IMG/VR virus record: IMGVR_UViG_3300030103_004582
Location: 37,590-64,131 of that record
From: a virus
Direction: 5' to 3' (one strand)
DNA: 26,542 nucleotides
The position numbers and the translations under genes are program-made. The notes below the pieces were generated by a model that saw only the letters and a list, made by a program, of their open reading frames with translations, was not told the DNA's origin and did no database searches. Positions 8,123 to 8,566 of the stretch are shown one piece after another. The stretch's first letter is position 1. Each line of letters begins with the position of its first letter.

Positions 8123-8566
8123 TTATGCCACAAATGAAATAAGATAAGTTCCTGGTTCAGCAAATGTCATATCTATTTGATCTAATTGATGTGGTCCGGT
8201 TACTTGATTAGCCGGAATCATGCCTGTAGAATTAACCATACCTACTGCTTCGGGTAAAATAACTTTCCCTCTATTAATATGGTAAACTGTAAAAACAGGA
8301 TAAAATCTATTTAATGTATGTGTAACAGTTACTGTTTCATTAAATTGTGTTGTAGTAACCAGTGTTGTATCTCTATGTGATGCGTCCGGATCATGTTGTA
8401 ATGAATTTAAACTAACACTTAAATCACTTAATCCATTATTACGAGTGAGTCTTAAGACATTCATATTTCCTGCATCACCTAATAAATCTACTTGAGATAT
8501 ATGAATCACTACCCGAACCACTACCATTAGTCGGTGTTTGCCAAGTTGCATTACCACTACCATCAC
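8123..8566 (-). CDS. Frame-displaced C-terminal tail of the mosaic adhesin (beta-sandwich tip domain)
   Basis: This frame has an ATG at 8566, but its first ~20 residues are an out-of-frame reading of the upstream adhesin and have low-complexity Val/Met composition. The meaningful part starts near 8496 with '[20 protein letters not shown]' and ends at the TAA at 8123. It continues the repeat whose first half ('DSYIS') lies in the adhesin frame. The last ~70 residues ('NETVTVTHTLNRFYPVFTVY' to 'GTYLISFVA') resemble the C-terminal domain of the 2046-residue fibre ('QNTITHSLKDENVIVQVV' to 'GEYKIIIIG'). It is most simply the detached 3' end of the adhesin gene. Expression as a separate protein from an internal start, such as the ATG at 8429, is possible. 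The alternatives are programmed frameshifting or a sequencing error. Confidence 0.6.
   Translation of the reverse strand: MMVVVMQLGKHRLMVVVRVVIHISQVDLLGDAGNMNVLRLTRNNGLSDLSVSLNSLQHDPDASHRDTTLVTTTQFNETVTVTHTLNRFYPVFTVYHINRGKVILPEAVGMVNSTGMIPANQVTGPHQLDQIDMTFAEPGTYLISFVA

What the first reader, a model, noticed from the sequence alone, without database searches (positions are those of the whole stretch)
8475..8566. One AT unit missing from an (AT)3 tract splits the mosaic adhesin
The long frame ends [10 protein letters not shown]-stop, while the frame continuing past it reads [12 protein letters not shown]...LRLTRNNGLSDLSVSLNSL. Neither half makes a complete repeat. Adding a single AT at 8497-8502 gives [11 protein letters not shown], which aligns column by column with NTFVTGGTLSG in the neighbouring fibre; a +1 skip gives one residue too few. 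The repaired protein then repeats the layout of its own N-terminus (a DSDGNAEW motif followed by an L.LT...G...SIDLSDL unit). It also gains a C-terminal domain like that of the 2046-residue fibre. This fits slipped-strand phase variation, a fresh disabling mutation, or a sequencing/assembly error. If variation is real, it would switch the fibre tip on and off.
Basis: partly seen in the sequence, partly recalled or inferred. Interest (0 to 1): 0.8.

Follow-up and report, generated by a model that had tools for sequence, protein, structure and literature searches.

The report
Stray frameshift in phage tail-fibre gene
A long tail-fibre gene of an uncultured phage is cut short by two missing DNA letters in this one assembly, while four related records (three lineages) carry it whole; the proposed AT-repeat on/off switch is not there, so this is most likely an assembly error or a private mutation.

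Summary
The split is real in the window. The 1929-residue collagen-bearing fibre ORF (8475-14264, minus) stops at a TGA, and its natural C-terminus continues in another frame (8123-8500). Four related IMG/VR records from three lineages encode both halves as one uninterrupted ORF of 2131, 1498, 1498 and about 2242 residues. One of them is 99.7-99.99% identical to the window's scaffold over about 94 kb. The split-gene inference is therefore confirmed.

The stated cause is wrong. In the three records that keep the local DNA, the (AT)3 tract has the same length as in the window. The two absent bases lie next to the tract, and relatives read DSYIT, not DSYIS. (AT)3 is also less frequent in the window than chance. 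Slipped-strand phase variation at an AT tract is not supported.

The near-identical sister scaffold carries its own private 4-bp frame break in a neck-like gene (head-tail adaptor match), where switching is implausible, so these scaffolds contain stray frame-breaking indels. Most likely this is a local sequencing or assembly error; second, a private loss-of-tip mutation. Reads are needed to decide.

What does vary between the near-identical phages is an in-frame 261-nt collagen module.

The parts
8475..14264 (-). Tail-fibre/adhesin ORF, 1929 aa, collagen-bearing, prematurely ended at TGA 8475
   Evidence: PF01391 collagen; PHROG tail-fibre matches
8496..8497 (-). Site of the frame break: two bases present in G001, G002 and G003 are absent between these positions
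8497..8502 (.). (AT)3 tract, same length in all three relatives that keep this DNA; not the site of the length change
8123..8500 (-). Orphaned C-terminus of the fibre: last repeat unit and tip domain, in another frame
   Evidence: 99% identical to G001, 83% to G002/G003, 45% (last 100 residues) to L059, in-frame in all of them
9528..9971 (-). Collagen-module region; G001 has one extra in-frame 261-nt module, the window one extra 9-nt unit

Best explanation
The window carries one tail-fibre/adhesin gene of a T4-like phage that should run uninterrupted to 8123. In this scaffold two nucleotides beside (not in) an AT tract are absent, which shifts the frame and stops translation a few codons later, removing about 120 C-terminal residues (the last repeat unit and the tip domain). 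Most likely it is a local sequencing/assembly error in a patchy metagenomic scaffold and the phage population makes the full-length fibre. Shown: the gene is one ORF in all four related records, and the AT count is unchanged in the three that keep the local DNA. Inferred: that the missing bases are an error rather than a real private allele.
For: One ORF in G001, G002, G003 and L059. The two-base gap is the only difference between G000 and G001 from 7330 to 9555. G001 carries its own private 4-bp frame break in a head-tail adaptor gene that is open in G000 and aligns gap-free to G002, so such stray indels occur in these scaffolds. G002 and G003 show no indel in 97 kb. Both G000 and G001 are patchy, with 10-N gaps where the other often reads through.
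Against: The break is not at an N gap or contig end, and no reads could be seen, so a real private mutation is not excluded. Coverage and sequencing platform are unknown to me.
Confidence: 0.6

Rival explanations
1. A real private mutation: a phage genome in the sample lost two bases, and its fibre ends without the tip domain, being either a dead or weakened genome or a viable variant with altered adsorption.
For: The surrounding sequence is otherwise identical to G001, so the call there is good apart from this gap; tail fibres are often under changing selection (general knowledge).
Against: All four relatives keep the tip; the sister scaffold shows a comparable break in a neck-like gene, which points to error.
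Confidence: 0.33
2. Slipped-strand phase variation at the (AT)3 tract switches the fibre tip on and off.
For: The break lies directly beside an (AT)3 tract.
Against: The tract has three units in the window and in G001-G003; the absent bases are outside it. (AT)3 is rarer in the window than chance.
Confidence: 0.02
3. The two frames are joined or used by design: programmed ribosomal frameshifting, or separate translation of the tip by re-initiation at the ATG shortly after the TGA.
For: An AGGA stands just upstream of an in-frame ATG close behind the stop (sequence).
Against: All relatives encode the product without any shift, so no recoding signal can have been selected across the group. The AGGA is not kept in G002.
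Confidence: 0.03

Closest known systems
Frameshift errors in metagenome-assembled viral contigs (discussed for long-read assemblies in PMC6487183)
   Same: An isolated indel truncates an otherwise conserved ORF in a single assembly
   Different: The platform of this record is unknown to me; N gaps of fixed length suggest a scaffolded short-read assembly (inference)
Collagen-like phage tail fibres (e.g. EPcl proteins of E. coli O157:H7 prophages, PMC3368898)
   Same: Gly-X-Y stretches (PF01391) within a tail-fibre protein; length differences in multiples of three residues
   Different: Longer and more mosaic, with a C-terminal tip that matches no Pfam or PHROG family
Slipped-strand phase variation at simple sequence repeats (well described in bacteria, e.g. 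PMC1891110, PMC8355987, listed)
   Same: A frame break beside a short repeat
   Different: The repeat number does not change between the alleles; the tract is only three units long

Membership tests
Slipped-strand (simple-repeat) phase variation | The repeat copy number differs between alleles and explains the frame | tested here: not met
   Three AT units in G000, G001, G002 and G003; absent bases lie outside the tract
Slipped-strand (simple-repeat) phase variation | A hypermutable repeat tract longer than chance | tested here: not met
   (AT)3: 29 in the window against 46.6 expected
Slipped-strand (simple-repeat) phase variation | Both states present and reversible in one population | not testable with these tools
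   No reads held; G000 and G001 show two states once, in different records
Programmed frameshift / split gene by design | The two-frame layout is conserved in homologues | tested here: not met
   One frame in all four homologues
Collagen-like phage tail fibre | Collagen triple-helix repeats in a tail protein | tested here: met
   PF01391 E=7e-17; PHROG tail-fibre families to 1e-30; in a phage with sheath and terminase
Collagen-like phage tail fibre | Trimeric assembly with a C-terminal trimerisation or receptor-binding domain | not testable with these tools
   Models of the tip were of low confidence

The most novel reading that the evidence does not exclude
The short allele is a genuine, common variant in the phage population that removes the fibre's tip domain, and together with in-frame gain and loss of 261-nt collagen modules the phage diversifies this fibre within a population.
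Probability: 0.12. Interest if true: 0.4.

Novelty: not a real feature. Interest (0 to 1): 0.12.

Why it matters
It removes a tempting but wrong claim of a phage phase-variation switch and shows how to tell one apart: the repeat count must differ between alleles, and here it does not. It also warns that private frame-breaking indels occur in such scaffolds, one in each of two near-identical records. For annotation, the fibre of this phage group should be taken as one protein with a conserved C-terminal tip.

Tried and rejected
AT slippage: rejected, tract length unchanged in relatives. Separate downstream gene: rejected, one ORF in all four relatives. Programmed frameshift: rejected for the same reason. 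Host genomes: no relative of the C-terminus in genome contigs. Annotated phages: no match to the tip or to the 299 residues before the break. PDB sequences: nothing for the tip. Pfam/PHROGs: no real family for the tip (one sub-threshold DUF5707 hit at 17.6 bits against a cut-off of 26.8). AlphaFold2 of the tip, two runs with 2-3 sequences: confidence too low (mean pLDDT 47 and 52) for a fold search. dN/dS of the segment after the break, G000 against G002: 0.116/0.169, not informative, but only this frame is open (about 15 stops in each of the others). Literature search for the source sample number of G001: nothing.

Full report
What is in the window. The window is bases 37590-64131 of a 99,870-base virus record, a stretch bounded by two 10-N gaps. 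On the minus strand it carries a row of very long fibre-like genes. The gene in question, 8475-14264, is 1929 residues long, has three collagen stretches (PF01391, E=7e-17) and matches PHROG tail-fibre families. Elsewhere on the scaffold are a tail sheath, a terminase large subunit, a head-tail adaptor and a baseplate-like protein, so this is a contractile-tailed phage. The terminase is at most about 30% identical to the listed hits in the phage collection; among the best are Flavobacterium phages of the immuto group and a Microcystis phage.

The split is real in the sequence. The frame ends ...[10 protein letters not shown]-stop and the other frame carries on as [12 protein letters not shown].... 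Four other virus records hold the same gene. G001 (L002) is 99.7-99.99% identical to the window's scaffold over about 94 kb and has one ORF of 2131 residues. G002 and G003 (L003, L004; 11 substitutions and no indel between them in 97 kb) have one ORF of 1498 residues. A third lineage, L059 (an 84-kb record, found through the neighbouring fibre), has one ORF of about 2242 residues whose last 100 residues are 45% identical to the orphaned segment and which aligns with it across the break. No record with a separate downstream gene was found.

The cause is not a lost AT unit. In the minus-strand orientation the window reads GATTCATATATCTCAAG, G001 reads GATTCATATATAACTCAAG, and G002/G003 read GATTCATATATAACAAATG. 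The AT tract has three units in all four records; what the window lacks lies just outside it. Aligning G000 with G001 places the gap at 8496/8497. (AT)3 occurs 29 times in the window against 46.6 expected from shuffles, so it is not a special tract either. Without a change in repeat number there is no slipped-strand phase variation to propose. L059 has replaced the DNA around the junction and does not bear on the tract.

The repetition of the N-terminal layout at the C-terminus is real: the intact C-terminus of G001 against the first 75 residues scores 103, against a shuffle mean of 29.4 and maximum of 55 in 500. The similarity of the tip to the C-terminus of the 2046-residue fibre is weak: 21% identity and E=0.002, hhalign E=0.018 with probability 2.6%, above 1000 shuffles for one tip but not for the L059 tip. 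It may be distant homology or shared beta-strand composition.

Error or mutation. Between window positions 7330 and 9555 the two-base gap is the only difference between G000 and G001. Across the whole alignment, outside N gaps and collagen repeats, I count about 20 substitutions and two frame-breaking indels, one private to each record. G001's own is a 4-bp loss in a 388-residue gene with a head-tail adaptor match (phrog_211). That gene is open in G000, aligns without a gap to G002 (88% identity), and is broken in G001. A broken neck gene cannot be a useful switch, so at least that one is most simply an assembly fault (inference), and the same explanation is the most economical for the window. 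Both scaffolds also contain N gaps, several where the other record reads straight through. A genuine private mutation that removes the tip cannot be excluded without reads; I put it at about one in three.

A variation worth noting. Aligned over the collagen region, G001 has one extra, in-frame 261-nt module (87 codons: collagen, a short beta-like unit, collagen), while the window has one extra 9-nt unit. The copies share exact stretches of 40-53 nt at offsets of 261-270 nt. In-frame gain and loss fits what is published for phage collagens, whose length differences are typically multiples of three residues (PMC3368898). Repeat collapse in assembly is the rival here too.

Verdict. Split gene: confirmed. 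AT-slippage switch: not supported. Most likely a local assembly or sequencing error, second a private loss-of-tip mutation. Interest is low.

Noticed in passing
9528-9971; L002 (G001) collagen region: Two otherwise near-identical phage records differ by one in-frame 261-nt collagen module and one 9-nt unit in the same fibre gene: either real module-number variation or repeat collapse in assembly.
   Followed up: partly
G001:C1 near 98690 (L032); intact at G000:C1:33584-34750 (L024): A private 4-bp frame break in a head-tail adaptor-like gene of the sister scaffold G001, open in G000 and gap-free in G002.
   Followed up: yes
13650-14057 (minus strand): Segment of the fibre with HPFKIV...[12 protein letters not shown], resembling a cupredoxin-like copper-site pattern (from memory); no PDB sequence match.
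   Followed up: partly
14264-20404 and 21291-23549 (minus strand): Arrays of an IIGG.NN.I-type repeat in two neighbouring fibre-like genes; the 2046-aa one has no Pfam match and only weak PHROG matches. They look like beta-solenoid stalks (inference).
   Followed up: no
501-6029 (minus strand): 1842-aa fibre-like protein with a 13-fold NTFITGTTL-type motif, same motif family as the junction sequence; its 94% identical relative led to the third lineage L059.
   Followed up: partly
20483-21289 (minus strand): 268-aa protein with a concanavalin A-like lectin domain (Laminin_G_3, E=5e-12) between the fibre genes; a candidate sugar-binding part.
   Followed up: no
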